Below, piece after piece: positions 21,789 to 38,763 of a stretch of 40,311 bases of DNA. Every line of letters starts with the position of its first letter. Within the stretch, counting starts at the first letter, position 1. The notes beneath the pieces were generated by a model. The model was not told the DNA's origin and did no database searches. It saw only the letters and a list, made by a program, of their open reading frames with translations. The stretch is from Thermoanaerobaculales bacterium. GTDB taxonomy: Bacteria; Acidobacteriota; Thermoanaerobaculia; Thermoanaerobaculales; Sulfomarinibacteraceae. Both the position numbers and the translations under genes were made by a program. Where the stretch lies: the NCBI GenBank assembly GCA_029287235.1, contig JARFRM010000090.1, forward strand, positions 1-40,311, in the 5' to 3' direction.

Positions 21789-22837
21789 ATCCAACTGACA
21801 CCGGACTCAAGGCCGCGGTCGCCGGGGCCACGGGCTATGTCGGCGGTGAGCTCCTCCGTCTGCTCTCGGACCACCCTCGGATCGCCGATGTCCGCGGCTT
21901 CTCCACAACCGCCGCCGGCCGGCCGTGGTCGGAGATCCACCCGAATTTTCTCAACCGACCCGATCAACCGGTCTTTGACGCCTTCGACGCCGGTCGGGTG
22001 GGAGAGTGGGCCGACATCGTCTTTCTGGCTCTGCCCCACGGCGAGTCACAACTCATCATCGAGGCCATCGAGGAGGGTTCGCCCGAACTCGTCGTCGACA
22101 CCGCCGCGGATTTCCGCCTCAACGATCTCGACCTCGCAGAAGGCGCCTACGGAGAGCACCAGAAGCCCGAGCTGCTGGGAAGCTTTGCCAACGGCCTCGC
22201 CGACATCGAGGCCGATGCCCTCGCCGGCGCGACACGGATCGCCATTCCCGGGTGCTTCGCCACCGCGACCATGCTCTCCCTGTGGCCTCTCGCGTCCGTC
22301 CTGAGCGCCGAGTCGCACCCCGTGTGCTGGGCGGCAACGGGATCTTCCGGTTCGGGCGCCAACGCAAAGACCACCACCCACCATCCCTTCCGCGCCCACA
22401 ACTTCTACGGCTACTCTCTGGGCGGACACCGCCACGAGGCCGAGCTCGAAGAGAGACTCTCCGAGTGGTGCGGTCCCTCGGCGCCCTCATGCTCTCTGCT
22501 GACCCATTCGGCGCCGATGATCCGCGGCATCCACGCCACCCTTCGGGTGCGCCTCGCCGATCCCGTGGACGAACCCATGGAACTTCTCTACGCAGCCTAT
22601 TCCGACCGTCCCTTTGTTCACGCCCTGGACCAGCCGCCACGACTGGCCTCTGTGGTCGGCACCAATCACGCACACATCCACGCCGTGGCTCGCGACGACG
22701 GCCATGAGGTCCTGGTCCTGACCGTAATCGACAACCTCATCAAGGGCGCCGCCGGCCAGGCGGTGCAGGCCATGAATCTCTCCTTCGGCTTCACCGAAAC
22801 AGCCGGTCTCGAACAGATGGGAATCGCGCCATGCTGA
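21785..22837 (+). CDS. argC: N-acyl-gamma-glutamyl-phosphate reductase
   Basis: The 350-residue enzyme starts at a GTG overlapping the previous stop. A Rossmann motif lies near residues 11-21 (AVAGATGYVGG), and the catalytic Cys157 lies in AIPGCFATATM. The canonical motif is PGCYPT; the CFAT form here resembles Bacteroidota ArgC. The dehydrogenase domain continues with TGSSGSGANAK and HRHEAELE. It reduces N-acylglutamyl phosphate to the semialdehyde with NADPH. Whether the acyl group is acetyl or succinyl depends on the pathway variant indicated by argF'. It overlaps argD by seven bases. Confidence 0.9.
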   Translation: MNPTDTGLKAAVAGATGYVGGELLRLLSDHPRIADVRGFSTTAAGRPWSEIHPNFLNRPDQPVFDAFDAGRVGEWADIVFLALPHGESQLIIEAIEEGSPELVVDTAADFRLNDLDLAEGAYGEHQKPELLGSFANGLADIEADALAGATRIAIPGCFATATMLSLWPLASVLSAESHPVCWAATGSSGSGANAKTTTHHPFRAHNFYGYSLGGHRHEAELEERLSEWCGPSAPSCSLLTHSAPMIRGIHATLRVRLADPVDEPMELLYAAYSDRPFVHALDQPPRLASVVGTNHAHIHAVARDDGHEVLVLTVIDNLIKGAAGQAVQAMNLSFGFTETAGLEQMGIAPC

Positions 22838-23994
22838 CCACCACCCACCCCGCCGAGGTCCCGGTCTACGGCCGGCTCCAGCTGCAACCCGAACGCGGCG
22901 CCGGTTCCACCGTCGTCGGCGCCGACGGCCGGCGCTTCCTCGATCTCTATGGCGGCCACGCGGTGGCCGTCAGCGGCCACTGCCACCCCCGGGTGGTCGC
23001 CGCCATCCGCGAGCAGGCCGAACGGCTGCTCTTTTATTCCAACGCCGTGCCGCTGGAAAGCCGCGATCGGCTCTTCGGGCTGCTCGCCGAGATGGCGCCC
23101 GCGCCCCTCGATCAGGCATTCCTCGTCAACTCCGGGGCCGAGACCAACGATGTCGCCCTCCAGCTCACCCGCCGGGTCACCGGACGACGCCGTGTCATTA
23201 CCTTTGAAGGCGGGTTCCACGGACGTACCCTGGCCACCCTCGCCGTGTCCGGGATTCAGCGCTATCGCGATCTCGCCGAGGCCAGCGGAGGTCAATCGAT
23301 CCTCGATCTCACCGTGATTGCTCCCTGGGGACGGCCGGAGGTTCTTCCGGCCCTGGTCGACGAGACCATCGCGGCGGTCATCGTCGAACCGATCCAGGGT
23401 CTGGCCGGCGCGAGGGAGGTCGGCGCCGATATTCTTCGAACCCTTCGAAGAGCATGTGACGACGCCGGCGCGGTGCTCGTTTTCGACGAGGTCCAGTGCG
23501 GCTGTGGTCGCACCGGTGCCTTTACCGCGGCCCAGAGCTATGGCGTCACCCCGGACATCCTCACCCTGGCCAAGGGCATCGCTGCCGGCCTGCCCATGGG
23601 CGCGGTCCTGCTTTCTCCGCGAATCGCCAAGCATGTGTCGCAGGGAGACCTGGGCACCACCTTCGGCGGTGGGCCCATTCCCTGTGCCGCGGCTGCCGCC
23701 AACCTCGAAGTCATCCGCGATCAGAACCTCGCCGATCGGGCGTTGCATCTGGAGCGGCGGCTGCGACAGGGGCTTGCCGATCTGCCCGCCGTCACCGAGA
23801 TCACCGGTCGCGGTCTCCTTCTCGGGCTTCGCCTCGACCGCCCCGCCCGACCGGTCCAGCTGAGACTCTTCGAGCGGGACATCCTGGTCGGTTCCGCCAC
23901 CGACCCCTCGGTCATCCGTCTTCTGCCCCCATTGGTTCTCACCGAAGACGAGGTCGACACTTTCGTTCGCAGATTGCACGAGGCGCTGTCATGA
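22831..23994 (+). CDS. argD: N-acylornithine aminotransferase
   Basis: The 387-residue PLP enzyme is of class III. Visible marks are NSGAETNDVALQLTRRVTG, FEGGFHGRTLATLAVSG, the Asp of VFDEVQCGCGRTG and Schiff-base Lys248 in TLAKGIAAGLPMGA. It transfers an amino group from glutamate to N-acylglutamate semialdehyde, giving N-acylornithine. ArgD enzymes often accept both acetyl and succinyl substrates, so it does not settle the acyl group. It starts inside the end of argC and its TGA overlaps the ATG of argF'. Confidence 0.92.
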   Translation: MLTTTHPAEVPVYGRLQLQPERGAGSTVVGADGRRFLDLYGGHAVAVSGHCHPRVVAAIREQAERLLFYSNAVPLESRDRLFGLLAEMAPAPLDQAFLVNSGAETNDVALQLTRRVTGRRRVITFEGGFHGRTLATLAVSGIQRYRDLAEASGGQSILDLTVIAPWGRPEVLPALVDETIAAVIVEPIQGLAGAREVGADILRTLRRACDDAGAVLVFDEVQCGCGRTGAFTAAQSYGVTPDILTLAKGIAAGLPMGAVLLSPRIAKHVSQGDLGTTFGGGPIPCAAAAANLEVIRDQNLADRALHLERRLRQGLADLPAVTEITGRGLLLGLRLDRPARPVQLRLFERDILVGSATDPSVIRLLPPLVLTEDEVDTFVRRLHEALS

Positions 23995-25013
23995 CGAGGA
24001 AACATCTCATCGGAACGGACGAGTGGTCAGATGACGAGATCCGCTCCATCCTCGCCCGCGCCTCCGAGCTCAAGGCGGGCGCCGCCGGCGACAGCTTCAC
24101 CGGCAAGGCGCTGGTCATGGTCTTCTTCAACCCCTCGCTGCGAACGCGCACCTCCTTCGAAGTGGCCATGGCGCGCCACGGCGGCCACGCGGTGATCCTC
24201 GAACCCGGCCGCGGCGCCTGGACCATCGAGACCCGGTCCGGGGTTGTGATGGATGGAGAAGCGGTGGAGCACATCGTCGAGGCCGCCCGGGTTCTCGGCC
24301 GCTATGGCGAGGCGGTGGCCGTGCGCGCCTTTCCCAGCACCGACACCTGGGCCGAAGCACGAAGGGACGAGGTGGTCCGCGGCTTTGCTCGCCACGCCGG
24401 CGTCCCCACCATCAACATGGAGTCGGCCCGACGCCACCCGTGCCAGGGTCTGGCCGATGCCCTGACCCTGCAGGAGAACCTCGGCGAGCGGCCTCAGAGC
24501 CGTCGCTTCGTTCTCGCCTGGAGCTGGCACCCGCGAGCCCTGCCCACCGCTGTGCCGGCGTCGGCGGCCCTGGCCGCGGCGCGGCTCGGGATGGAGGTCG
24601 TCGTGGCCAGACCGCCGGGCTACGATCTGGACGCCGACGACATGGCGTCCATCGGGGCGGTGGCGAGACGCAACGGCGGTTCGGTGAGCGTCACCGACGA
24701 CCTCGACTCGGCGGTGTCCGGCGCCGACGCCGTCTACGCCAAGAGTTGGGGCTGTCTCGACGATTTCGGCGACTTTGAAGAGGAGGCCGTCCGGCGGGCG
24801 CCATACCGGGACTGGATCATCAACGAAGACCGGATGTCGTCGACCCGCGACGGCGCCGGGATCTTCCTCCACTGCCTGCCGGTACGGCGCAACGTGGTGG
24901 TGACCGACGGAGTTCTCGACGGCCCGTGGTCAAGGGTCACTCAGGAAGCGGAAAACAGGCTGCACGCACAACGAGCCGTGCTCGAAACCATGATCGCAGG
25001 GAGAAAGATATGA
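23991..25013 (+). CDS. argF': N-acylornithine carbamoyltransferase, predicted N-succinylornithine type
   Basis: The 340-residue enzyme aligns along its length with Xanthomonas AOTCase and Bacteroides SOTCase, not with ordinary OTCase. The carbamoyl-phosphate loop is FFNPSLRTRTSFE at about 45-57. The N-acyl-type segments GAWTIET, VMDGEAVEH, INMESARRHPCQ, YAKSWG and HCLPVRRNV follow in order. Residue 92, Glu in the acetyl enzyme and Pro in the succinyl enzyme, is Val here. Residue 185, Asn in the acetyl enzyme, is Pro here (HPRALPTAVP) as in the Bacteroides enzyme. Published substitution of Glu92 by Val, Ala, Ser or Pro switches the acetyl enzyme to succinylornithine, so I predict N-succinylcitrulline as the product. 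The open frame extends upstream to 23496 inside argD but starts at ATG 23991. Confidence 0.88.
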   Translation: MTRKHLIGTDEWSDDEIRSILARASELKAGAAGDSFTGKALVMVFFNPSLRTRTSFEVAMARHGGHAVILEPGRGAWTIETRSGVVMDGEAVEHIVEAARVLGRYGEAVAVRAFPSTDTWAEARRDEVVRGFARHAGVPTINMESARRHPCQGLADALTLQENLGERPQSRRFVLAWSWHPRALPTAVPASAALAAARLGMEVVVARPPGYDLDADDMASIGAVARRNGGSVSVTDDLDSAVSGADAVYAKSWGCLDDFGDFEEEAVRRAPYRDWIINEDRMSSTRDGAGIFLHCLPVRRNVVVTDGVLDGPWSRVTQEAENRLHAQRAVLETMIAGRKI

Positions 25014-25927
25014 CCGACCTCGTCAACGGACTCAAGGATGCGCTGGAGTACACCCGGCTCTACAGGGAGCAGATCTTCGTACTCAAGCTCGGTGGCGAGG
25101 TTCTGTCGTCTCCGGAGGCGCTGGACAACGTCGCGGTGCAGGTGGCGTTGCTGGAGTCACTCTCGATCCGGGTGTTGGTGGTGCACGGGGGAGGGCCTCA
25201 GGCGAGCGCGTTGTCGCGACGGATGGGTCTCGAACCCGAGATGGTGGCCGGCCGGCGAGTGACCTCGCCCGACGTGCTCGAGATTGCGAAGATGGTCTAC
25301 GGTGGACAGATCAACGTCGATGTCGTCGCCGCCCTACGCGGCCACGGCGTTTCGTCGGTGGGTCTGACCGGGATCGACGCCGGTCTCGTCACCGTCCACC
25401 GCCGCCCGCCGGTGGAGATCACCGATGACGACGGCGTCACCCGGACCGTCGACTTCGGCGAGGTCGGCGATGTCGACGCGGTGGACACCAAGCTCCTCGA
25501 CATCCTGCTGCCCCGCGGTAATGTGCCGGTGGTGGCTTCCCTGGCCGCCGACACCGAAGGCCGGATCATGAACGTCAACGCCGACACTCTCGCCGCGGTC
25601 CTCGCGAGCGCCCTCGGCGCCCAGAAACTGGTCTACATGACCGGCGCGCCCGGTCTGCTGCGCGACGCCGAGGATCCCTCCTCGCTGGTGGCCTTCGCCG
25701 CGCCCGAGGACCTCCAGGCGCTGCTCGCCAACAAGAGCGTCAAGGGCGGGATGCGGCCCAAGGTCGAGGCCTGCCTGCAGGCCGTCAAGGACGGCGTCCG
25801 CCGCACCCACATCATCGACGGCCGCACGCCGGATGCCCTCTTGCTCGAGCTCTTCACCGGTCACGGCAGCGGAACGATGATCGTCGGTGAGCGGGAGAAG
25901 CGCACCTACGAGACCGCCGGACGATGA
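25010..25927 (+). CDS. argB: N-acylglutamate kinase
   Basis: The 305-residue amino-acid-kinase-fold enzyme has FVLKLGGEVLSS near the start, VHGGGPQASALSRRMG, GLTGIDAGLV and the C-terminal nucleotide segment VKGGMRPKVEACLQAVKDGV. These match ArgB, which phosphorylates N-acetylglutamate. In this operon the natural substrate may be N-succinylglutamate. It is longer than the arginine-insensitive E. coli type. The N-terminal 15-20 residues (LVNGLKDALEYTRLYREQ) form a helix as in arginine-inhibited hexameric kinases, so feedback inhibition is plausible. Start and stop both overlap neighbours by four bases. Confidence 0.9.
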   Translation: MTDLVNGLKDALEYTRLYREQIFVLKLGGEVLSSPEALDNVAVQVALLESLSIRVLVVHGGGPQASALSRRMGLEPEMVAGRRVTSPDVLEIAKMVYGGQINVDVVAALRGHGVSSVGLTGIDAGLVTVHRRPPVEITDDDGVTRTVDFGEVGDVDAVDTKLLDILLPRGNVPVVASLAADTEGRIMNVNADTLAAVLASALGAQKLVYMTGAPGLLRDAEDPSSLVAFAAPEDLQALLANKSVKGGMRPKVEACLQAVKDGVRRTHIIDGRTPDALLLELFTGHGSGTMIVGEREKRTYETAGR

Positions 25928-27000
25928 CCAACGCGGACGCCACCGAGCTGCTGCTGAGCCTGGTCCGGACTCCGAGCCCCTCCGGCGACGAGGCCGCGGC
26001 GGCCGCAGTGCTCGCCGAATGGTCAACAGCTCATGGTCTGGAACCCGAGGTCGACGACACCGCGGTACGTATCGTCATCGAGGGCGAACGACCCGGACCA
26101 ACCCTGCTCATGGCGTCCCACCTCGACACGGTTCCGTCCGGCGACGGCTGGTCGGTTCCGCCCACCGCCGGGGTGGTGAAGGACGGTCGCCTCACGGCTC
26201 GCGGCGCGGTAGACGCCAAGGCTTCGGTCAGCGCCATGGCCGCCGCCGCGGCCGAGCTCGCGGCCGCCGGCGGGCCGGCAGCCGGGCGTTTGGTGGTTCT
26301 CGCCACCTACTCCGAGGAAACCCGCGACACCTCCATGCCGATGGCGCTCGACCGCCTCGGCGACCCACCCGATGCGGCGGTGGTGGGCGAACCCACCTCG
26401 CTCCAGCCGTGCATCGCCCAACGCGGCCAGCTCCTGCTCGAGCTCCACTGGTCCGGCGACCAGGTCCACGCGGGTTGGGCCGCCGGACGGCAACCACCTC
26501 CGGTCAACGCCATCAACCGCGCGGCGCAGGACCTCACGGCCCTCGAGGCCCTGGTCTTCGAACGCAGCCATCCGCTCCTCGGCTCGGTGGCGGTGACGCC
26601 GACTCAGCTCGAAGCCGGGGTCGCCCGTAACGTCACCCCACCGTCGTGTTGGGCCATGCTCGACATCCGGACCACCCCCTCCTACGAGCACGACGAGGTC
26701 GTGGCCATGATCCGGGACCGGGTCTCGGCGAGGATCGAGGTCTACTCCGACCGGCTGGTGCCGGCCGAGACACCGGCCGGCTCGAAACTTCTTCCGGCGG
26801 TGATGGCCGCCCGGCCGGCGGGGACCCCATTCGCGTCACCGACCTGCTCCGACTGGGTCTTTCTCCGCCATGTCGACGCGATCAAGCTCGGACCGGGCGA
26901 CTCTCGGCAGTCGCACACCATCGACGAGTGGATCGAGCTTGCCGAGGTCCGCAATGCCACTCAGATCTACACCGGGATCGCCAGGGAGTACCTGAAATGA
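25924..27000 (+). CDS. argE: M20 deacylase, probable N-acylcitrulline/N-acylornithine deacylase (ArgE-like)
   Basis: The 358-residue metallopeptidase has the M20 dizinc set: His66 and Asp68 (SHLDTVPSGDGW), bridging Asp97 (GAVDAKAS), catalytic Glu131-Glu132 (SEETRDTS), Glu156 (GEPTSL) and His331 (QSHTIDEW). A dimerisation insert lies near 165-265. In bacteria with an N-acylornithine carbamoyltransferase the deacylase acts after carbamoylation, releasing citrulline from N-acylcitrulline. Its place between argB and argH fits this. LysK and DapE share the fold, but operon context favours arginine synthesis. It overlaps both neighbours by four bases. Confidence 0.85.
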   Translation: MTNADATELLLSLVRTPSPSGDEAAAAAVLAEWSTAHGLEPEVDDTAVRIVIEGERPGPTLLMASHLDTVPSGDGWSVPPTAGVVKDGRLTARGAVDAKASVSAMAAAAAELAAAGGPAAGRLVVLATYSEETRDTSMPMALDRLGDPPDAAVVGEPTSLQPCIAQRGQLLLELHWSGDQVHAGWAAGRQPPPVNAINRAAQDLTALEALVFERSHPLLGSVAVTPTQLEAGVARNVTPPSCWAMLDIRTTPSYEHDEVVAMIRDRVSARIEVYSDRLVPAETPAGSKLLPAVMAARPAGTPFASPTCSDWVFLRHVDAIKLGPGDSRQSHTIDEWIELAEVRNATQIYTGIAREYLK

Positions 27001-28367
27001 AACGCAGTCTTTGGGGCGACGGCAGCGGCCTCGACTCGGGCGTGGCCGCCTACACGACGGGCGACGACCGACGCTGGGACCAGCGTCTGCTGCGGTGGGA
27101 CATCATCGCCACCTCGGGCCATATCGGGGGCCTCACCGAGGCGGGCCTCCTGACTACGGAGGAGCACGCCACCCTCACCGGCGAGCTCGGTCGGGCGCTC
27201 GATGCCGCCGATAGCGGTCTCTTCAGGGTCGCCGAAGACGACGAGGACGCCCACTCCGCCCTCGAGCACCGGCTGGTGGACCATCTCGGCGAGCTCGGCG
27301 AGAAGGTGCACACCGGCCGATCTCGCAACGATCAGGTCATGGCTGCCCTGCGCCTCTATCTCAAGTCGGCACTGCTCGAGATCGAGGCGGCGGTCATCAC
27401 CACCGCGCGGTCGTTGATCGCCTTCGGCAACAGCCACCAGCGGGTGGTCATGCCCGGCTTCACCCATATTCGGCGCGCCATGCCTTCCTCGGTGGGACTG
27501 TGGGCGGCGGGCTATGCGGAGGTGCTGCTCGACAATCTGGGTCTCCTCGACGCAGCCTACGATCTGGCGGACCGCGGGCCTCTGGGGAGCGCCGCGGGCT
27601 ATGGGGCGCCGTTGCCTCTCAACCGACGAGCGGTCTCCGACACCCTCGGTTTCGCCTCGCCCCAGCTCGCCGTCACCGCGGCCCAGCTGTCGCGCGGCAA
27701 GCTCGAGGCCACGGTGCTATCGGCGCTGTGGGCCGTGGCGCGGGACCTCGCGGCCCTGGCCTGGGACGTGGTGCTCTTTTCGGCCGACGAGTACGGCTAC
27801 TTCATCCTGCCGACGGAGCTCGCAACCGGTTCTTCGATCATGCCCCAGAAGCGAAACCCCGACGTTTTCGAGCTCACCCGCGGCCGGGCGGGCGTGATTG
27901 CCGGTCTGGCGACCCAGGCCATGGCGGTGGCCGGTTCGCTGCCCGGTGGGTACCACCGGGATCTTCAGCTCACCAAGGGCCCGATGATGGAGGGGATCGA
28001 CACGGTGAACGCCATGTTGGCAATGATCGCCGGCGCGATGCCTCGGCTCGGAGTCGATGCCGGGCGATGCGCCGCCGGGGCCGGAGGCGATCTTCTCGCC
28101 ACCGACGAGGTCTACCGCCGGGTCCGCGAAGGAGTGCCGTTTCGCGCGGCCTACCGGCAGGTCGCGGCCGAGATCAAGGCTGGAGGGGAGATCCCCGCCC
28201 TGGATGCCGAGGCGATCCTCGACGCGAGACGCCATCTCGGCGGCGCCGGGGCGCCCGCCCTCGACCTGATCGAGGCGATCGCCGAGCGGGCGAATGAGCG
28301 GATCACCGATCGGGCCGACAATCTCAACGATGTCATCGCCCGACTCATGGGGACCGGCGGACCGTGA
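26997..28367 (+). CDS. argH: argininosuccinate lyase
   Basis: The 456-residue fumarase/aspartase-superfamily enzyme starts at an ATG overlapping the argE stop; an upstream continuation of the frame is shadow. It has HSALEHRLVDHLGE, KVHTGRSRNDQV and the signature loop GSSIMPQKRNPD with its catalytic Ser. The usual GYTHLQxAQP segment reads GFTHIRRAMPSSVGLW: the His is kept while both Gln are changed, a form I associate with Bacteroidota ArgH. No C-terminal acetyltransferase domain is fused, so it does not supply the missing N-acylglutamate synthase. It produces arginine and fumarate. Confidence 0.93.
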   Translation: MKRSLWGDGSGLDSGVAAYTTGDDRRWDQRLLRWDIIATSGHIGGLTEAGLLTTEEHATLTGELGRALDAADSGLFRVAEDDEDAHSALEHRLVDHLGELGEKVHTGRSRNDQVMAALRLYLKSALLEIEAAVITTARSLIAFGNSHQRVVMPGFTHIRRAMPSSVGLWAAGYAEVLLDNLGLLDAAYDLADRGPLGSAAGYGAPLPLNRRAVSDTLGFASPQLAVTAAQLSRGKLEATVLSALWAVARDLAALAWDVVLFSADEYGYFILPTELATGSSIMPQKRNPDVFELTRGRAGVIAGLATQAMAVAGSLPGGYHRDLQLTKGPMMEGIDTVNAMLAMIAGAMPRLGVDAGRCAAGAGGDLLATDEVYRRVREGVPFRAAYRQVAAEIKAGGEIPALDAEAILDARRHLGGAGAPALDLIEAIAERANERITDRADNLNDVIARLMGTGGP

Positions 28368-28822
28368 GCTCCCTCGAAGACCGTCGCCGGGTGATCCTCG
28401 AGGAAATCGCCAACCGCAGGATCGAAACCCAGGAGCAGCTGGTGACTGCGCTTCGAGAGCGGGGAATCGAGGCCAGCCAGGCCTCGGTCTCCCGTGACAT
28501 CACGGCCCTGCGGCTGGTCAAGGCCGACGGGCGGTGGACGGCGCCGACCCGGGGTCTGCCCACCACCAACCGATTCGAGGAACGGATCACCGGCCGCCTG
28601 CTGTCGGTCGATGCCGCGGGTGACCATCTACTGGTGCTGAGAACGCCACCGGGAGAAGCCCAGGGCGTTGCCCTCGCCCTCGACGATCTCTCACCCGAAG
28701 GCGTCGTCGGCACCATTGCCGGCGACGACACCATCTTCGTCGCCGTGATTGAGGCCGCTGCCGGTCTCGAGGTGGCCGGGTGGCTGAGGTCGCTGATTCC
28801 GGGGTCAGGAGTCAGGGGGTGA
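28364..28822 (+). CDS. argR: arginine repressor ArgR
   Basis: The 152-residue regulator has a winged helix-turn-helix in residues 1-70 (ETQEQLVTALRERGIEASQA then SVSRDITALRLVK) and a C-terminal oligomerisation and arginine-binding domain with VVGTIAGDDTIFVAV. It starts at GTG 28364, overlapping the argH stop by four bases. As the last gene of the operon it should bind the ARG boxes at 19409-19521 when arginine is abundant, repressing its own synthesis with the pathway. The last six residues (GSGVRG) come from GGTCAGGA-type DNA related to the tandem array downstream, suggesting the array has grown into the gene end. Confidence 0.92.
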   Translation: MSSLEDRRRVILEEIANRRIETQEQLVTALRERGIEASQASVSRDITALRLVKADGRWTAPTRGLPTTNRFEERITGRLLSVDAAGDHLLVLRTPPGEAQGVALALDDLSPEGVVGTIAGDDTIFVAVIEAAAGLEVAGWLRSLIPGSGVRG

Positions 28823-29893: not shown

Positions 29894-30032
29894 CCTCGGC
29901 TTCCTCCTCTGACGATGGTGTGCGGGAGCCCGGTTCGAGGTACGGTCTCGTGGCCCTCGGGTTCTGGAAGATCCCGCTGCCTCCGGGAATCGCCGTGAAT
30001 GAAAAAGGCTCAGAATTCCAGGGGTCTCGGCT

Positions 30033-30149
30033 TCAGAACGTCAACACCTGGGTGTCGGGATCCTTGAGCGCCTCGGTGAGCGGCACCCCCATCCCCTTGA
30101 CATCGACACCGAAGGGCTCCTCCCGTTGTTTCTCTTCCTGCAGGGTAGA
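30033..30149 (-). pseudogene. possible remnant of a gene C-terminus
   Basis: On the minus strand a 38-codon frame without an ATG reads EEPFGVDVKGMGVPLTEALK then DPDTQVLTF and a stop. Its composition looks like real protein, unlike the Arg/Pro-rich shadows elsewhere, but it is closed upstream by TAG at 30150-30152 and merges into the zinc-ribbon gene start. It may be a relic or coincidence. The rest of the gap 29894-30159 shows nothing else. Confidence 0.2.
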
Positions 30150-30159
30150 CTATGACACC

Positions 30160-31053
30160 ATGACCGTCGCCCCACTCGAGCTGTCATGCCGCTCCTGCGG
30201 CGCCAAGCTGGTGGTGGAACCCACCCACCGCACCACCCGCTGCCCCTACTGTGACACACCCTCGGTCATCGATCGTCCGGCCACCGCCGACCGCCCCGAT
30301 CCGGTCTTCGCCATCTGTTTCACCATCGACGGGGATCAGGCCCGAAGCTTCCTGCGCAGCTATCTGAGCCGCCGGCACTGGGCGCCGAAGGCGCTCCGTC
30401 AGGCCACCGCCGAACGGGTCGAGGGCGTCTACCTTCCCGCCTATCTCTACAGCGCAGTCGCCCACAGCCGCTACCGGGCCTCCATCGGCGAGAACTACAC
30501 GACCACCGAGTTCGACGCCAAGCGCAAGTCCATGCGACGGGTCTCCAAGACCGAGTTCCGCACTCTCGAGGGGTCCCACCGGTGCTATGTCGACGATCTC
30601 GTGGTCACGGCATCCGAGGGCATACCCAATATCGAGCTCGAGGCCATCGAGCCGTTCGACCTCACCGGTCTGCGCCGGTTCGCACCGGCCATGGTCTCCG
30701 GTTGGACCTCCGAGGAACCGTCGCTGAGCCGCAACGCCTCTCTCGAGTTCGCACGGCAGGAGACTCGAGCCGACGTGGCGCGACGCCTCCGGGCCTTCAT
30801 GCCCGGAGATTCCCACCACGGCCTGCAGAGCTCCACCACTCTCACCGATGAGGCCATGGACCTGGTGCTGCTGCCGGTCTGGGTGTGCGCCGTGCGCTGG
30901 GGTGAGGGAAATGAGCCGATCCGACTGCTCGTCAGCGGCCAGTCCGGCCGGGTCGCCGGTGAGGTCCCGATCTCGTGGGCCAAGATCGCCGCAGTGGTCG
31001 GCGCCGGCTTGGCGCTCATCGGACTCGCCGTCATCCTCGGAGCGCTGCTGTGA
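30160..31053 (+). CDS. zinc-ribbon protein with a C-terminal membrane anchor (first of a tandem pair)
   Basis: The ATG at 30160 gives 297 residues; the frame is open to 29920 but without coding character. A four-Cys zinc ribbon is formed by Cys10, Cys13, Cys28 and Cys31 (CRSCGAK, CPYCDTP). A mixed alpha/beta region of about 220 residues follows, with FLRSYLSRRHWAPKAL, YLPAYLYSAVAHSRYRA and LLPVWVCAVRW. The last 25 residues form a hydrophobic anchor (IAAVVGAGLALIGLAVILG). I do not know its function. The next gene encodes a paralogue and overlaps by four bases, so the two probably act together at the membrane with cytoplasmic ribbons. Confidence 0.75.
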   Translation: MTVAPLELSCRSCGAKLVVEPTHRTTRCPYCDTPSVIDRPATADRPDPVFAICFTIDGDQARSFLRSYLSRRHWAPKALRQATAERVEGVYLPAYLYSAVAHSRYRASIGENYTTTEFDAKRKSMRRVSKTEFRTLEGSHRCYVDDLVVTASEGIPNIELEAIEPFDLTGLRRFAPAMVSGWTSEEPSLSRNASLEFARQETRADVARRLRAFMPGDSHHGLQSSTTLTDEAMDLVLLPVWVCAVRWGEGNEPIRLLVSGQSGRVAGEVPISWAKIAAVVGAGLALIGLAVILGALL

Positions 31054-32024
31054 GAGACACCGTTCTCCGCTGCGATCGTTGTGACAGCGCCATTACGGTC
31101 GACGATCTGCGCTGCCCGATCTGCAATCTCACCAGCTCGGTCGCACTCGGTGAGGACCGACCCGAGACCGCCGTGGAGATCCTGCGCTGTTCCGGGTGCG
31201 GCGCCGCCATGACCTACGACGTCGGCAGGCGCGCTGCGTCCTGCGCCTTCTGTGGTTCGGTCCTCGAGCTCGAACAAACAAAGGACCCCCCGGAGGAGGC
31301 TCGGCTCCTGCTGCCCTTCACCGTTGACCGGGATCGGGCAAGCACCGCCCTGGGAAACTGGCTCGGCTCCCTCGGCTGGTTTCGTCCCGGTGATCTGACC
31401 TCGGGCGCCCGCCTGGAGACCATGCAGCCCCTGCGCTGGGTCGGCTGGGTCTTCGACGCCCGGGCGACGGTGAGCTGGGCGGCCGACACCGATCAGGACA
31501 GCCACAGATCGGACTGGGCTCCCCACGCCGGTCAGACCGAGCTCGACTACGACGACGTCGTGGTGCCGGCGACCCGCGGTCTGACCCGGGAGGAGATCGC
31601 CCACCTTCTGCCGAGCTATGACCTGGGCTCGGCCGCCGCCGTCGCCGATCTCGTCGACCTCGTTGACCACGCCACTTTGGAACGGTTCGACGTTCCGCGA
31701 TCGACGGCCAGAGCTCGACTCGTCAAGGCCGTGGAGCTGGTCGCCCGTCGGCGGCTCGAAGAGCGACACCTCCCCGGCCGCAGATCACGCAACCTCAAGA
31801 CAGCCACGGTGCTGCGTCGCCTCGAGGCACGCCGCTTCGCGTTCCCGGTCTGGGTGCTGGCGTACCGCTACAAGAACCGCCTCTACCGCACGGTGCTGTC
31901 AGGCCAGGACGAGAGCTGCCTCAAGGGCGAGGCGCCGTACTCCGCCTTCCGGATCGCGGCCGTCCTGGCTGGGGGGGCCGCAGGGTTGATAATCCTGCTC
32001 GTCCTCCTCGGGCTCCTCCTCTGA
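31050..32024 (+). CDS. double zinc-ribbon protein with a C-terminal membrane anchor (second of a tandem pair)
   Basis: GTG 31050 overlaps the previous TGA. The 324-residue protein has two zinc ribbons: Cys8, Cys11, Cys22, Cys25 and Cys47, Cys50, Cys65, Cys68. Its later part parallels the upstream gene: LLPFTVDRDRASTALGNWL corresponds to the first protein's ICFTIDGDQARSFLRSYL, and FPVWVLAYRYKNRLYRTVLS to its LLPVWVCAVRW segment. A C-terminal helix (AAVLAGGAAGLIILLVLLGL) ends the chain. The pair looks like an old duplication with an extra ribbon gained or lost. Function is unknown. Families with this layout are sometimes labelled TFIIB-type zinc-ribbon proteins. Confidence 0.75.
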   Translation: MRDTVLRCDRCDSAITVDDLRCPICNLTSSVALGEDRPETAVEILRCSGCGAAMTYDVGRRAASCAFCGSVLELEQTKDPPEEARLLLPFTVDRDRASTALGNWLGSLGWFRPGDLTSGARLETMQPLRWVGWVFDARATVSWAADTDQDSHRSDWAPHAGQTELDYDDVVVPATRGLTREEIAHLLPSYDLGSAAAVADLVDLVDHATLERFDVPRSTARARLVKAVELVARRRLEERHLPGRRSRNLKTATVLRRLEARRFAFPVWVLAYRYKNRLYRTVLSGQDESCLKGEAPYSAFRIAAVLAGGAAGLIILLVLLGLLL

Positions 32025-33147: not shown

Positions 33148-33702
33148 ATGATCGGAAGAATCGAATCCAAACAACCGAAGACGCGTTCGATCCTCCTGCT
33201 CCTGACGGCGATCCTGATCCTGTCGTGGGCCAACGCCTCGGCCGGACCACCACCGGACTTCCGGCTCCAGGACCTCGACGGTAACTGGTTCACCCTCTCG
33301 GAACACCTCGGCGACGATGTCGTTTATGTGACCTTCTGGGCCACCTGGTGTGTTCCCTGCCGACGCGAGATGCCCCACCTGGAGAAGCTCCAACAGGAGT
33401 TCGCCGACAAGGGCCTGACCATCATCGGCGTCAACACGGATCCGCCGGGGACGACGAGCAAGATCAAGCCTTTCGTCAACCGCTACAAGCTCACCTACAC
33501 CCAGGTGCTCGACCCCACCAACAACGTCCTCGACAAATACAACCCGACCCGCGAGCTGCCCTACGCGGTCCTCATCGACCGATCAGGCAACGTCCACGAG
33601 ATCTTCCCCGGCTACCGCAAGGGCGACGAGATCCTTTTGCGGGAGAAGGTGGAGGCGCTGCTCGCGGCCGACGGGGGAGCCAATACCGGTGACACCGAGT
33701 AA
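33148..33702 (+). CDS. TlpA/ResA-like thiol-disulfide oxidoreductase, exported
   Basis: The 184-residue protein has a signal or membrane anchor (RSILLLLTAILILSWANASA, about 13-32) and a thioredoxin fold of the AhpC/TSA-related TlpA type. The motif is FWATWCVPCRREMPHLEKL with Cys68 and Cys71, followed by IIGVNTDPPG and cis-Pro segment ELPYAVLID. It acts outside the inner membrane, usually reducing disulfides for cytochrome c or metal-site assembly. GGGGTG precedes the ATG. The barrel gene begins 14 bases before its stop, and the candidate selenoprotein follows, so it may be a redox partner. Confidence 0.9.
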   Translation: MIGRIESKQPKTRSILLLLTAILILSWANASAGPPPDFRLQDLDGNWFTLSEHLGDDVVYVTFWATWCVPCRREMPHLEKLQQEFADKGLTIIGVNTDPPGTTSKIKPFVNRYKLTYTQVLDPTNNVLDKYNPTRELPYAVLIDRSGNVHEIFPGYRKGDEILLREKVEALLAADGGANTGDTE

Positions 33703-35203
33703 AGTCCTCCCCACCGCCATCGCCGCTCTGATGCTGGCGGCACCCATACCGGTCGCCGCCCAGGAGGACACCCCGGCGGAAGGCAAGAGCTACCGGATCT
33801 TCGGCCAGCTGACGACGATCTTCGAACGCAACCAGACCGGACCCGAGCCCATCCAGCCTGCGCGTCTCGAGTACACGAAGCTCAAACAGCTAGCGAGCTT
33901 CAATATCGAGTGGAAGAGAATCACGGTCGGCGCCCAGGCCGAGTACCTCTACTGGTCCGTACCGGAGGAGAACCGGGACCGTCTCGATCTCGACCGGCTC
34001 CGCGAGGGCTTCGAGCTTCGCCGCTACTTCCTCGACTATCAGTCGGATCTCTTCTCCGGCCGGCTCGGCACCTACTTCGCCTCCTTCGGCCGCGGTCTGA
34101 CCCTCTATGTTCAGAAGAACGAGGTCCTCCAGTTCGACGAACCCATCCACGGCGCCACCGCCAGAGTCAGCCTGAAGCACTTCGACATCTCGGCGCTCTG
34201 GGGTAACGTCACCGAGCCCGTCCAACAGGCGCAGTATGGGCGCGAGTTCGAGGACGAGGTCATGGGCGGACGGATCCGGGCCCGGCTCCCCCTCGATCTC
34301 TACATCGGCGGATCGGCGGTGCGCGCCGATCTCGACCGGTTCTTCCCCGCCGGCACGGACACGGTGGAGGTTTGGGCCGCCGAGGCCGGCGGCACGAGCC
34401 TGTGGGGAGTGCTCGATCTGGCCGGCGAGTTCTCCGAGATCAAGACCATTGAACCCAACCGGGTCAAAGAGGGCCACGGGCGATACCTCTCGGCCGCGGC
34501 CTACGTCGGGCCGCTGTCGATCCTCGCCGAGTACAAGGACTACTACAACTTCGCCTACCGCTACAACCTGCCGCCCAGCGCCGGGAGGGCCGACGAGTCG
34601 TACGAGCACAACGACGTCAAGGGCCCCCGCCTGCTGGTGTCGGCCGACTTCTGGTCCATCGGTTCACTCTTCCACGCCAGCTACGCTCAGTTCAACAGCC
34701 ACAAGACTGCCAACTCGCCAGGCGGTACGTTGGGCGATCGTCAGATCGAGTGGTACGCCGGGATCGAGCAGACCATCGGGCGATTCTATGTCCTGGCGAG
34801 CTACTTCGATCGCAACTTCGTCGATCGCGAGATCAAGGAGAGGCACACCCTCGCTGACTTCCATCTCACCGTCGGTAAGAGGGGCGAGCTGATCCTCGGG
34901 CTCGACCAGCGGCTCGAGGAGTCGCAATACGCCAGCCTCGACATCACCCGGACCTTCCTCGCCTACTCGATTTCGCCATGGGGGACGGTCTCGCTCCGCT
35001 ACTCGTACGAGGACAGCATCAGTTCCGCCAAAGACGAGATCGTCGACTACTGGGGTGTCGAGCTCCAGTACCTGCCCAAGCCCACAATCATCATCACCCT
35101 CTTCGGCGGCGGCGATCCGGGCGGACTGGTCTGCGCCGGCGGCCAGTGCCGACAGGAGCCCCGCTTCGAGGGCTTCAGGGCCAACTTCACATGGAGATTC
35201 TGA
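33689..35203 (+). CDS. predicted outer-membrane beta-barrel protein (DUF6029-like)
   Basis: The GTG at 33689, inside the end of the thioredoxin gene and behind GGGGGAG, opens a 504-residue product with a Sec signal (ending PIPVAAQ, about 1-25). The mature part is made of alternating short strands rich in Tyr, Phe and Arg (SYRIFGQLTTIFERNQTG, RYLSAAAYVGPLSILAEYKD, GTVSLRYSYEDS) and ends FEGFRANFTWRF, with the terminal Phe typical of barrels inserted by BAM. It resembles barrels labelled DUF6029 in Bacteroidota. Two Cys lie in a late loop (LVCAGGQCRQ), a possible disulfide next to redox genes. Cargo is unknown. Confidence 0.75.
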   Translation: MTPSKVLPTAIAALMLAAPIPVAAQEDTPAEGKSYRIFGQLTTIFERNQTGPEPIQPARLEYTKLKQLASFNIEWKRITVGAQAEYLYWSVPEENRDRLDLDRLREGFELRRYFLDYQSDLFSGRLGTYFASFGRGLTLYVQKNEVLQFDEPIHGATARVSLKHFDISALWGNVTEPVQQAQYGREFEDEVMGGRIRARLPLDLYIGGSAVRADLDRFFPAGTDTVEVWAAEAGGTSLWGVLDLAGEFSEIKTIEPNRVKEGHGRYLSAAAYVGPLSILAEYKDYYNFAYRYNLPPSAGRADESYEHNDVKGPRLLVSADFWSIGSLFHASYAQFNSHKTANSPGGTLGDRQIEWYAGIEQTIGRFYVLASYFDRNFVDREIKERHTLADFHLTVGKRGELILGLDQRLEESQYASLDITRTFLAYSISPWGTVSLRYSYEDSISSAKDEIVDYWGVELQYLPKPTIIITLFGGGDPGGLVCAGGQCRQEPRFEGFRANFTWRF

Positions 35204-35258
35204 TACCTTCCAGAGCAACAATGAAAGCGCGCCCGACAACCGCGCGCGAGGAGACGAC

Positions 35259-36872
35259 ATGACCGTACGACAACCACACACCGAAACCCGACGGTGGGCC
35301 GCACCCGCGCTCCTCGCGGTGGTCCTCGTCATGTTGACCGTGTCCGTCGTGGGCGCCGCCGAGCGGGTGGTGCTGGGTGAGTACTTCACCAACCTCTTTT
35401 GAACGTCGTGTGCGACCACGGGGCCCGTGGTCGAGCAACTTGCGGCGGACTACCCCGACCGCTTCGCGCCCGTCACCATGCATGTTAACGATGATGGGTA
35501 TGACCTTCCCTGGGGCCAGAGCCGACTCGACGTTTTCTACGGGATCCCCGGCGTGGTCCCGACCTTCATGGTCGACGCCCTGTGGAACTGCCAGTCGGCG
35601 GACTACCGCTATTACGTCGAGCAACAGCTCAACCAGCCCACCGATGTCACCCTCGAGCTCTCCGCCAATCCGGTCGGGGGCAGCACCTGGGATGTGACGG
35701 CGAGGGTCTGCCTCGTCGGCGGGTCGGCGAGACCGATCCGGGTCTTCATCGCGGCCACCCTCGACAATCATCCCAGTCTGCCGCGACACACGACCAACGT
35801 TCTGATGCAGAACGTGATGGAGTCCAACATCAATCCCTCGGCCAACGGCTGCGAAAACGTCACCAGCCGAATCACCTTCGACTCTCTGAGCATGTCTCAG
35901 ACATCGGACATCGTCGTCATCGCCTGGGCCCAGATGCCGACCACGAGTGCGCCGACCACGGTCTACCAGGCCGGCATCATGCGTTGGCCGTTCCCGGCCG
36001 GTTCTCAGTTGACCACCATCGACGTCGCACCCGCCAATGCAACCGTGGCCATCGGCGAACAGATCGTCTACACCGCCATCGGAAAGGACCAGTTCGACCA
36101 GCCCTATCCACTGGAGAATCCGATATGGAGTCTCGGCGACGTGGGGTCCGGCAGCGGGACCTTTGATCCCGGAGTCGGCAGCGCCACCACCACCTTCACT
36201 GCCACCACCGCGGGTTCCAGGCAGGTCTTCTGCAATGAAGACGGAGTCACCGGCGGCGCCATCGTGACCATCACCGAAGCCCCGCGTCTGGCCTCTATCG
36301 AAATCGATCCGAACGCGGTCACGGTGGGCGTCGACGGTCAGGTCGCCTTGCTGGCCACGGGAAAAGACCAGTTCGGCGCCGACTTCCCCCTCACCGATCC
36401 GGAGTGGAGTGTCAGCGGCTCGGGTGACGGCACCTTCTCACCCGCCACCGGCACGACCACCACCTTCACAGCGTCCTACCCGGGCACCGCCGTCGTGACC
36501 TGCGCGCAGGGCGATGTCTCGGGGATCGCCGAGGTCGAGATCACCGGCGACGATCCTCATCTCGCGACCATCGAGCTGAGCCCCGCAACGGCCCACACCC
36601 GGGTCGGAGATGAGCTCGATTTCGCTGCCGCCGGCAGCGACCAGTACGGCCGGGTCTTCGAGCTCGTCGACCCCACCTGGCGCATCGAGGGCGATGGCGA
36701 CGGCCACTTCGACCCCCTCAGCGGCAGCCCGGCGACGACCTTTACGGCGACCACAGCGGGAACAGCGCAGGTCATCTGCTCCGACAACGGCATCGAGGGG
36801 GCCGCCACCATCGAGATCGCTCGCCGCGGTCTGCCTGCCCCGAGGAAGGCACAGGGTCGGGTGGCGCCGTGA
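35259..36872 (+). CDS. candidate selenoprotein: secreted Omp28/thioredoxin-like protein with UxxC motif and three Ig-like repeats
   Basis: Read through a single in-frame TGA at 35400-35402, the gene encodes 537 residues. AGGAG precedes the ATG. A signal peptide (about 13-33) leads to GEYFTNLF-U48-TSCATTG, where the TGA occupies the first position of a thioredoxin CxxC motif. The paralogue at 37015 has EDATATWCTYC in register. GIPGVVPTFMVDA follows, resembling the cis-Pro strand. Residues from about 248 to 525 are three Ig-like (BIG2-type) repeats of about 90 residues, each with GKDQF or GSDQYG and TTTFTA. Reading stays open for 490 codons after the TGA. A SECIS-like hairpin follows the TGA. 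The alternative is a nonsense mutation or sequencing error, giving a pseudogene. The thioredoxin part should act in the periplasm or outside the cell. Confidence 0.75.
35413..35433 (+). promoter_or_regulatory. bacterial SECIS-like hairpin behind the TGA
   Basis: A 9-bp perfect stem (CGACCACGG/CCGTGGTCG) closes a GGC loop. The loop begins 20 bases after the TGA, inside the 16-37 base window known for bacterial SECIS elements, and its first base is G as required. Outer pairs (TG with CA) could extend it past a two-base bulge. It lies within the coding region, as SelB-dependent decoding needs. Confidence 0.65.
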
Positions 36873-37014
36873 TCCACGAGTCTTGTTTTCCAGCGCCATG
36901 CTTCGCAGAGGCCGGCGCCCGGATTGACGGACCGCATTCCGAACGCCGGCGGCCGGAACAATCGGGGCTTCGATCCACGTCGTTCAACGACACTTTCACA
37001 ATGGAGGAAGATCG

Positions 37015-38763
37015 ATGAAACAAGTGATGCTTCTCATCTGTGTGTTGCTCTCGGCAACCACTCTTCTGGCGCTCGACGCCTACCCAAAGACCAGTATCGC
37101 CGAGGACGCCACCGCAACGTGGTGTACGTATTGCCCTAACGCCTATGCCGGACTGGAAATTGTCCACGGCGAGTATGACTTCAGCCAGTTCGTCAGCGTG
37201 CGTTACTACGAGACCTCAGGCCTCTACGGAACGACGGAAACCGACGCCCGAAATGACTTCTACGTGGTCACCGGTTACCCAACCGTCATCCTCGACGGGC
37301 TCACCCACTTCGTCGGCGCGGGCGACACGACGGCGACCACCGGAGAACCCTATTTGACCGCGGTCGCGTCCGCAACTCTCGCGCCGGCGCCGATCCGGGT
37401 GGAGATCGACTCACTCGACACGACGACCGGCGCCGTCAGCGCCACCGTCACCATGCACTCCACGACCGCTGCCCTCAACAGTGACACCCTGCTTTTCGTA
37501 CTCCTTGAAGACGAATTGACCGCGAGTCACACCCACGTCGCCCGCGACCTCGTCTACGAGACCGTCTCCTTGACCGGGGCCGGCAACACAACCACCGTGA
37601 CCACCAGCTTCACCATCGACCCCTCGTGGAACGCGGCGAGCCTGTATGCGGTGGCAATTGTCCAGCGCGTGGCCGACAAGGAGGTTCTTCAGGCAGCCTC
37701 GACCTTCCCGCAGCCGACCCACAGCCTCCGCGCCATGGCGCCGATTGATCGCCTGGTGTTCGGTCCCTCGGCGGGGACCTACACCACCGGCGATATCACC
37801 GTGATGAACGTCGGATCGTCCGACAGCTACACCGTTGATGTGGTTGTCGACGCCGGCCCTCCGGGCACCCAGGTGAGCTTCACGGACGAGTTCGGTGCAA
37901 CCCATACCACTCCCCAGCCCCTGAGTCTCGCTTCCGATGAGCAGACCTACTACAACGTCAACCTCATGCCCGGAGGCCCCGGACAGATCGAGTACCACCT
38001 CGAGATCACATCCACGAACCTGGCTTCGCCTCTGATGGTGCCGTTGACCTACTTTACCGATGATCTCGACGTCATGTTGATCGACGACGACGGCGGCGAC
38101 CCCTACGAGGTCTACTTCACCGATGCGCTCGATGCCGCCGGCAAGAGCTATGGTGTGTGGGATCGCGGCATGAGCACCCTCCCCGCCGAGATCGCCCTGT
38201 ACTACAACACCTTGATCTGGAACGTGGGTTGGGCATTCCCATCCCTCGACGCCGACGACAAGCTCTTCCTCACCGGCTACCTCGGCGACGGCAAGAACCT
38301 CTTCCTCAGCGGCCAGGACATCGGCTGGGATCTCAACGACCCCCAAGGATCGCCCGATCCCGTGTGGTACCAGAACACCCTGCACGCCAGCTATGTCCGT
38401 GACGACACCAACATCATGGATCTCGACGGCGTCGCCGGCGACCCGATCACCGACGGGCTGGCCCTGCACATCGCGGGCGGCACCGGCGCCAACAACCAGC
38501 AGTACCCCGACGAGATCGATGCGGCCGACGCCGACGCCACCGTGATCCTGAACTACCAGGGTGACGGCGGCGGCGCGATCCGCTCCGAGGACAGCGTTTC
38601 GGGCGCGAAGCTGGTCTACCTCGGCTTCGGTTTCGAGGGCATCAGCGAAGCCCAGGCTCGGAACGACCTGCTGATTCTGTCGCTGGACTGGCTCGAAGGC
38701 CTGGTCTTCCGCGACGGTTTCGAGTCGAGCGACACCTCGGCCTGGAGCGTTTCGTCACCCTGA
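37015..38763 (+). CDS. secreted Omp28/thioredoxin-like protein with CxxC motif
   Basis: GGAGGAAGATCG precedes the ATG. The 582-residue product has a signal peptide (MKQVMLLICVLLSATTLLAL) and a thioredoxin-like domain with EDATATWCTYCPNAYAG (Cys37 and Cys40) and cis-Pro strand VVTGYPTVILDG. A long beta-rich middle follows with possible Ig-like parts (VEIDSLDTTTGAVSATVTMH). After it comes a Rossmann-like segment (VMLIDDDGGDPYEVYFTDAL to FLSGQDIGWDLND). The C-terminus is VFRDGFESSDTSAWSVSSP, a tail I have seen repeated on exported proteins of some GC-rich phyla. It is the Cys-containing paralogue of the upstream candidate selenoprotein and probably shares its role in envelope thiol chemistry or adhesion. 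The 142 bases between them hold no other gene. Confidence 0.82.
   Translation: MKQVMLLICVLLSATTLLALDAYPKTSIAEDATATWCTYCPNAYAGLEIVHGEYDFSQFVSVRYYETSGLYGTTETDARNDFYVVTGYPTVILDGLTHFVGAGDTTATTGEPYLTAVASATLAPAPIRVEIDSLDTTTGAVSATVTMHSTTAALNSDTLLFVLLEDELTASHTHVARDLVYETVSLTGAGNTTTVTTSFTIDPSWNAASLYAVAIVQRVADKEVLQAASTFPQPTHSLRAMAPIDRLVFGPSAGTYTTGDITVMNVGSSDSYTVDVVVDAGPPGTQVSFTDEFGATHTTPQPLSLASDEQTYYNVNLMPGGPGQIEYHLEITSTNLASPLMVPLTYFTDDLDVMLIDDDGGDPYEVYFTDALDAAGKSYGVWDRGMSTLPAEIALYYNTLIWNVGWAFPSLDADDKLFLTGYLGDGKNLFLSGQDIGWDLNDPQGSPDPVWYQNTLHASYVRDDTNIMDLDGVAGDPITDGLALHIAGGTGANNQQYPDEIDAADADATVILNYQGDGGGAIRSEDSVSGAKLVYLGFGFEGISEAQARNDLLILSLDWLEGLVFRDGFESSDTSAWSVSSP

What the first reader, a model, noticed from the sequence alone, without database searches (positions are those of the whole stretch)
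35259..36872. Candidate new selenoprotein: in-frame TGA at the first position of a thioredoxin CxxC motif, with a SECIS-like hairpin
The gene has one internal stop, TGA at 35400-35402 (codon 48). It falls exactly where the next gene's paralogue has the first Cys of CTYC, giving U-T-S-C. The frame before it encodes a ribosome binding site, start and signal peptide, and the frame after it stays open for 490 codons of plausible protein. A perfect 9-bp hairpin with a G-first loop lies 20 bases past the TGA, as bacterial SelB-dependent SECIS elements require. Replacement of redox Cys by Sec is the classical selenoprotein pattern; I know of no Omp28-type protein with Ig-like repeats described as one.
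Basis: partly seen in the sequence, partly recalled or inferred. Interest (0 to 1): 0.95.

Follow-up and report, generated by a model that had tools for sequence, protein, structure and literature searches.

The report
New exported selenocysteine thioredoxin-like protein family
A gene from an uncultured bacterium, likely an Acidobacteriota, has a stop codon in its middle that its relatives share, with a hairpin right behind it, and is likely read through as selenocysteine to give a predicted exported thioredoxin-like protein that scores far below the cut-off of the one catalogued selenoprotein family it resembles.

Summary
TGA at 35400-35402 is the only internal stop. It falls at the first position of a thioredoxin motif (U-T-S-C). 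A 9-bp hairpin with a G-first loop starts at the 11th base after it. The genome carries tRNA-Sec(UCA), SelA, SelB and SelD.

The novelty claim must be trimmed: NCBI already has an 'Omp28-related selenoprotein' model (NF045500, GOS_C). This protein scores 13 bits against its cut-off of 200, so it is a distinct relative. It has three Ig-like repeats and, in Acidobacteriota, a conserved TlpA-DUF6029 locus. Selenium incorporation and function are untested. Four bearers lack a detectable tRNA-Sec or SelB, one of them both.

The parts
35248..35253 (+). GAGGAG, possible ribosome-binding site
   Evidence: Read directly; no program tested it
35259..36872 (+). Selenoprotein gene, 537 residues with predicted Sec at codon 48, ending in TGA
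   Evidence: dN/dS after the TGA 0.32-0.39 against four orthologues
35259..35357 (+). Likely signal peptide (codons 1 to about 33)
   Evidence: Sequence read by eye; not tested by a program
35400..35402 (+). In-frame TGA, predicted selenocysteine codon 48
   Evidence: TGA in 13 of 14 copies covering the site (own included), TGC in one; 7 more TGA genes in Planctomycetota
35409..35411 (+). TGT, Cys51, second Cys of the UxxC motif
   Evidence: Invariant in A1 (13 rows) and A4 (14 rows)
35413..35433 (+). Predicted SECIS hairpin: 9-bp stem, loop GGC
   Evidence: 91.7% of cells paired in 12 members, covariation score reached by 0 of 500 shuffles, constrained third codon positions; outermost pair absent in 8 of 12
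35340..36005 (+). Thioredoxin fold plus Omp28-like beta domain
36006..36869 (+). Three Ig-like (Big_2-type) repeats and short C-terminal tail
   Evidence: Model of the mature protein pLDDT 93.3, pTM 0.57; Foldseek to LigA and S-layer Ig domains; Pfam Big_2 14.7 bits, under its cut-off of 22.8
33148..33702 (+). TlpA/ResA-like thioredoxin, CVPC motif
   Evidence: AhpC-TSA 88.6 bits, Redoxin 80.9 bits; before the family gene in 6 of 6 Acidobacteriota genomes where the stretch is held
33689..35203 (+). DUF6029 protein (outer-membrane barrel by inference)
   Evidence: PF19494 54.3 bits, cut-off 27; Porin_4 18.6 bits, under its cut-off; before the family gene in the same 6 of 6 genomes
37015..38763 (+). 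Adjacent Omp28-type relative with Cys (C-T-Y-C)
   Evidence: NF045500 41.1 bits, cut-off 200; G001, G013 and two G016 copies have TGA at the same codon

Best explanation
The gene at 35259-36872 has one in-frame TGA at codon 48 and is predicted to be a SelB-dependent selenoprotein gene whose product is likely an exported thioredoxin-fold thiol oxidoreductase that would use Sec48 to attack and Cys51 to resolve. The likely course is as follows. SelB carrying Sec-tRNA(UCA) would bind the hairpin at 35413-35433 and insert Sec at the TGA. The predicted signal peptide would then export the protein. The U-T-S-C site, placed just before the first thioredoxin helix in the model, would exchange disulfides outside the cytoplasm. 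The TlpA-like neighbour would be a candidate electron partner. The DUF6029 protein and the Ig repeats would be a candidate outer-membrane partner and spacer. Shown here: conserved TGA, Cys replacement in homologues, hairpin conservation and covariation, Sec machinery, a locus conserved in Acidobacteriota, modelled fold. Inferred: selenium insertion, export, catalytic role, partners.
For: Machinery in the same genome: tRNA-Sec 75.2 bits with anticodon UCA, SelB 327.8 bits, 643 aa, SelA 496.4 bits, SelD 370.9 bits.

Conserved TGA: 13 of the 14 site-covering rows in 99 genomes (own included), the other being TGC in C-T-A-C. A pattern scan of one genome for each of 84,980 species gave 17 matches, 15 of them family members, 7 of those in Planctomycetota.

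Sec/Cys exchange: of 119 domain homologues looked at (159 found), 78 start after the site, 38 have Cys, 1 Ser, 1 Asp, 1 not aligned. Of 27 hits that cover the start of the Cys copy L022, 2 have C-T-A-C and 25 start after the site. The neighbour gene is Cys here and in G002, and TGA in G001, G013 and two G016 copies.

Coding after the TGA: aa identity 71/66/47/47% with dS 2.6-3.1 times dN. All 69 close database orthologues start after the site, 56 of them at residue 57.

Hairpin: covariation 0.263 against 0.134 shuffled, 0 of 500. Synonymous entropy 0.45 against 1.27 bits, permutation 0.0013.

Against: G104 (bearer of L071) has no SelB over cut-off and no tRNA-Sec. G101 has SelB but no tRNA-Sec. 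G008 and G018 have tRNA-Sec but no SelB over cut-off, at 88% and 79% completeness. The hairpin is broken in L026, L069 and L071. The outermost pair is absent in 8 of 12 members, and two weaker covariation measures were reached by 31 and 16 of 500 shuffles. Folded alone, six of seven Planctomycetota copies and three of twelve others (L026, L029, L031) prefer another structure. 88 of 99 genomes have SelB, so co-occurrence gives no support. The TlpA and DUF6029 neighbours were not seen beside any of the seven Planctomycetota copies or the short paralogues L028, L030, L032 and L034. The formate dehydrogenase check found no member over cut-off and no TGA in its matches, so no known selenoprotein of this genome was shown as a positive control. 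No protein or selenium data exist here.
Confidence: 0.87

Rival explanations
1. A pseudogene: Cys codon 48 mutated to TGA and the gene is decaying.
For: One internal stop in an otherwise open gene; database predictions hold only the part after it.
Against: The same TGA is in 13 of 14 copies covering the site, at 28-75% identity to this domain among those aligned, and in two phyla, with purifying selection after it. The five orthologues show no second internal stop.
Confidence: 0.03
2. The TGA is a true stop. The 489-codon rest is translated on its own from V57 (GTG), as gene callers predict, and the hairpin is a coincidence or serves something else.
For: 56 of 69 database orthologues are predicted to start at residue 57.
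Against: The part before the TGA is conserved as protein and holds the likely signal peptide and first thioredoxin strand. A start at 57 would cut the thioredoxin fold inside its first helix (helix 24-37 of the model is residues 51-64). Homologues with Cys read straight through. The conserved bases around GTG57 are explained by the hairpin stem.
Confidence: 0.05
3. The TGA is read through as Trp or another ordinary residue by leaky decoding or a changed code.
For: TGA read-through is known in some bacteria (recalled).
Against: This gene itself ends in TGA, and table 11 gives long open genes in the window. The exchange partner in homologues is Cys; Trp was seen in none of the 41 site-covering proteins. 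A tRNA-Sec and SelB are present.
Confidence: 0.03
4. It is an ordinary member of the already known Omp28-related selenoprotein family GOS_C (NF045500).
For: NF045500 is among the few models hit; all 14 members of A7 match it at E below 0.1, best 8.1e-7. By the alignment ends the Sec site falls at about profile position 51 both here and in L105.
Against: 13.1 bits against a curated cut-off of 200. None of 59 genomes, the five bearers of orthologues among them, has a match over the cut-off.
Confidence: 0.15

Closest known systems
Omp28-related selenoprotein NF045500 (hypothetical protein GOS_C, Zhang and Gladyshev 2008)
   Same: Trx-like fold, UxxC, Omp28 relation; predicted selenoprotein (passages and table seen, alignment figure not held)
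   Different: 13.1 bits against cut-off 200. Whether NF045500 members have Ig repeats or a TlpA-DUF6029 locus was not seen
HBP35 of Porphyromonas gingivalis (PDB 5y1a)
   Different: Cys not Sec; HBP35 binds hemin and its C-terminal domain directs it to the outer membrane; here three Ig-like repeats follow instead
Omp28 outer-membrane lipoprotein (PF11551, NF033782; PDB 2r2c)
   Different: NF033782 16.4 bits against cut-off 150; no PF11551 match for this protein
Catalogued UxxC thioredoxin-fold selenoproteins (DsbG-like, DsbA-like, Trx, SaoT and others)
   Same: Sec at first motif position (catalogue seen)
   Different: In the NCBIfam scan no selenoprotein model other than NF045500 was listed for the full protein at E up to 1

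Membership tests
SelB-dependent bacterial selenoprotein gene | In-frame TGA at a conserved redox position with Cys in homologues | tested here: met
   13 TGA and 1 TGC of 14 site-covering rows; 38 Cys, 1 Ser, 1 Asp, 1 unaligned of 41 site-covering proteins
SelB-dependent bacterial selenoprotein gene | SECIS hairpin after the TGA: loop 3-9 nt, G in first two positions, spacing 16-37 nt | tested here: met
   9-bp stem, loop GGC, spacing 19 nt; covariation. Broken in L026, L069, L071
SelB-dependent bacterial selenoprotein gene | tRNA-Sec, SelA, SelB, SelD in the genome | tested here: met
   for this genome; gaps in four other bearers
SelB-dependent bacterial selenoprotein gene | Selenium shown in the protein | not testable with these tools
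   Needs 75Se label or mass spectrometry
NF045500 Omp28-related selenoprotein | Curated score of 200 bits or more | tested here: not met
   13.1 bits; neighbour gene 41.1 bits
NF045500 Omp28-related selenoprotein | UxxC at the homologous column | tested here: inconclusive
   Alignment ends place U48 at about profile position 51; the model's own Sec column was not seen
Omp28 (PF11551 / NF033782) | Curated sequence cut-off | tested here: not met
   No PF11551 match; NF033782 16.4 bits against 150
Omp28 (PF11551 / NF033782) | Omp28 domain fold | tested here: met
HBP35-like thioredoxin | Two-domain fold | tested here: met
HBP35-like thioredoxin | Hemin binding and thioredoxin activity | not testable with these tools
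   Bench assays needed
Thioredoxin (PF00085) | Pfam gathering score | tested here: not met
   No match for the window protein; L031 22.7 bits against 23.5. A profile of 13 members hits thioredoxin chains at 9.3e-7

The most novel reading that the evidence does not exclude
An unrecognised clade of extracytoplasmic selenothioredoxins runs through Acidobacteriota and Planctomycetota. It holds up to four TGA genes in one genome. Sec is the prevailing state and Cys copies are the exception in its core subfamilies. Its Acidobacteriota members with Ig repeats form a fixed TlpA-DUF6029-selenoprotein locus that would carry electrons to the outer membrane. UGA would make output depend on selenium.
Probability: 0.43. 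Interest if true: 0.75.

Novelty: new variant of a known kind. Interest (0 to 1): 0.66.

Why it matters
If true, it adds a selenoprotein family to the 119 families and subfamilies listed in 2026. It would show that Omp28/HBP35-type proteins use Sec in at least two phyla. It would also explain why 69 database orthologues and 78 domain relatives begin after the active-site position: gene callers would stop at the TGA and restart behind it. The Sec and Cys versions of the same gene in sister species give a natural test of what Sec buys outside the cytoplasm.

Tried and rejected
Rfam scan of 35100-37200 gave no match over a gathering score. A covariation count on 19 members was repeated on 12 found by protein search, because seven had been fetched with a pattern that fixes part of the hairpin; L029 was left out for a 3-nt insertion. 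The synonymous test was likewise repeated on 11 members (after). Co-occurrence with SelB was rejected as evidence because 88 of 99 genomes have SelB. Formate dehydrogenase as a positive control was inconclusive. The whole-protein Foldseek search was dominated by Ig domains, so the domain was modelled alone. The search with the Cys copy L022 found 178 proteins, 120 listed, mostly through its C-terminal part; only the 27 whose alignment reaches the start were counted, and P0102 was left out. In one search, 119 of the 120 listed proteins were used (P0052 had been counted). One search lost its window row through my script error; the window hairpin is. Literature, listings only unless said: Omp28 with selenoprotein and bacteria 0 papers; Omp28 with selenocysteine 1, on Helicobacter; selenocysteine with Thermoanaerobacul 1; DUF6029 1; Omp28 with thioredoxin and outer membrane 8; selenoprotein with Planctomycet and in-frame UGA 0; selenoprotein with Acidobacteri and new selenoprotein 2, of which deep-Sep was seen in passages.

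Full report
What is there. The frame at 35259-36872 holds one internal TGA at codon 48 and then 489 open codons to a terminal TGA. The TGA stands where the thioredoxin motif of relatives has its first Cys, giving U-T-S-C. After ten spacer bases comes a perfect 9-bp hairpin with loop GGC. By itself the hairpin could be chance: 4 of 1059 TGA trinucleotides in the window have a stem of at least 9 bp in the right place.

Machinery. The window's genome (5.07 Mb, 336 contigs, 94% complete) has a tRNA-Sec with anticodon UCA, SelB, SelA and SelD, all over their cut-offs. Two genomes of its genus, G001 and G002, have contigs that agree in length and match positions with records titled Acidobacteria bacterium and Thermoanaerobaculales bacterium, so it is likely Thermoanaerobaculales.

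Conservation of the TGA. Searching 99 genomes (its own and 98 relatives) gave 18 matches in 9 genomes, of which 14 cover the site. Thirteen, the window's own among them, have TGA and one (L022) has TGC. The four other rows do not cover the site. Against the window gene the four other orthologues have 47-71% identity over the full length. After the TGA, dN is 0.21, 0.26, 0.52, 0.52 and dS 0.64, 0.71, 1.33, 1.48, so the part after the TGA is under selection as protein.

An independent scan. A pattern for TGA plus motif plus hairpin, run over one genome for each of 84,980 species, gave 17 matches in 15 stretches. Fifteen are family genes and two are chance. Eight are Acidobacteriota genes already found. 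Seven are in Phycisphaerae or other Planctomycetota, all with a UxTC motif.

Sec and Cys in wider relatives. All 69 close database orthologues start after the TGA position, 56 of them exactly at residue 57 and 13 further on. Of the 159 domain homologues found, 119 were examined: 78 start after the site, 38 have Cys, 1 Ser, 1 Asp and 1 could not be aligned. Among 27 hits that reach the start of the Cys copy L022, 2 have Cys and 25 start after the site. The DNA of these database entries was not seen, so a TGA there is inferred. The neighbour gene at 37015-38763 has Cys here and in G002, but TGA in G001, G013 and two G016 copies. Further distant TGA members exist in the phylum: L105, L117 and L118, the last two with an 8-pair hairpin (G-U allowed) at the same spacing but with different bases.

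The hairpin as RNA. In 12 members found by protein search, 91.7% of pair cells are standard pairs. Three pairs show changes on both sides (31 of 500 shuffles reach that), and the covariation score is 0.263 against 0.134 in shuffles, 0 of 500 reaching it; the outermost pair is absent in 8 of 12. Third positions of five conserved codons inside the hairpin carry 0.45 bits of variation against 1.27 in 22 elsewhere (permutation 0.0013). The Cys copy L022 and the Cys neighbour show no such hairpin. Against this, L026, L069 and L071 have a broken stem, and six of seven Planctomycetota copies and three of twelve others prefer another fold when folded alone. The Sec copies of the neighbour gene have only a weak 5-pair stem.

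Machinery in bearers. Of 14 other genomes bearing a family or neighbour-type TGA gene, 12 have a tRNA-Sec, confirmed by ARAGORN in 12 of 12; the best matches in the other two are tRNA-Ser. SelB over its cut-off is in 6 of 7 Planctomycetota bearers. G104 lacks both, G101 lacks tRNA-Sec, and G008 and G018 lack SelB. These may be incomplete genomes, but the gaps stand as counter-evidence.

How it likely works. Sec would be inserted by SelB at the hairpin. The signal peptide would export the protein. The Sec would attack disulfides outside the cytoplasm with Cys51 resolving. The TlpA-like protein may hand on electrons, and the DUF6029 protein and Ig repeats may place the domain at the outer membrane. 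Everything from insertion onward is inference.

Known or new. NCBIfam NF045500 is an Omp28-related selenoprotein, listed in 2026 as GOS_C of the 2008 ocean survey (PMC2398784 passages). The window protein scores 13.1 bits against its cut-off of 200, and no match in 59 genomes passes it. The 2026 review lists 119 families and subfamilies (PMC13188914, abstract, sections 5 and 9 and parts 1-2 of 3 of section 7); a word search of its main text finds neither Omp28 nor Acidobacteri. deep-Sep's nine new families (PMC12013277) and the 2022 review (PMC9312934) were seen as passages only. I therefore call it a new variant of a known kind.

Noticed in passing
window 37015-38763; L076, L077, L050: The next gene switches between Cys (window, G002) and TGA (G001, G013, G016 twice) at the same codon, so a second Sec family of the Omp28 type lies beside the first; its hairpin is weak.
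   Followed up: partly
L117, L118, L105: Distant TGA-bearing Omp28-like genes elsewhere in the phylum (UPSC, UGYC, UTYC), none over the NF045500 cut-off; L117 and L118 keep an 8-pair hairpin at the same spacing.
   Followed up: partly
G001 (L018, L027, L032, L076); G008 (L021, L028, L030, L034): Four TGA-bearing genes of this superfamily in one genome, twice.
   Followed up: no
L071 / G104: A TGA-bearing member in a genome without detectable SelB or tRNA-Sec and with a broken hairpin: recent loss or an incomplete assembly.
   Followed up: partly
window 29920-32024: Two adjacent, overlapping reading frames with zinc-ribbon-like CxxC pairs and a C-terminal hydrophobic stretch (my reading), without a Pfam match at E 0.001.
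   Followed up: no
window 19555-28822: By my reading of the ORF list, an arginine-biosynthesis-like run of genes; only the amino-acid kinase (24926-25927) was checked with Pfam.
   Followed up: no
P0197, P0315: Two Cys relatives bear signs of a GC-type dockerin domain (P0197 28.8 bits, cut-off 29; P0315 by its source name), hinting at another surface anchor.
   Followed up: no
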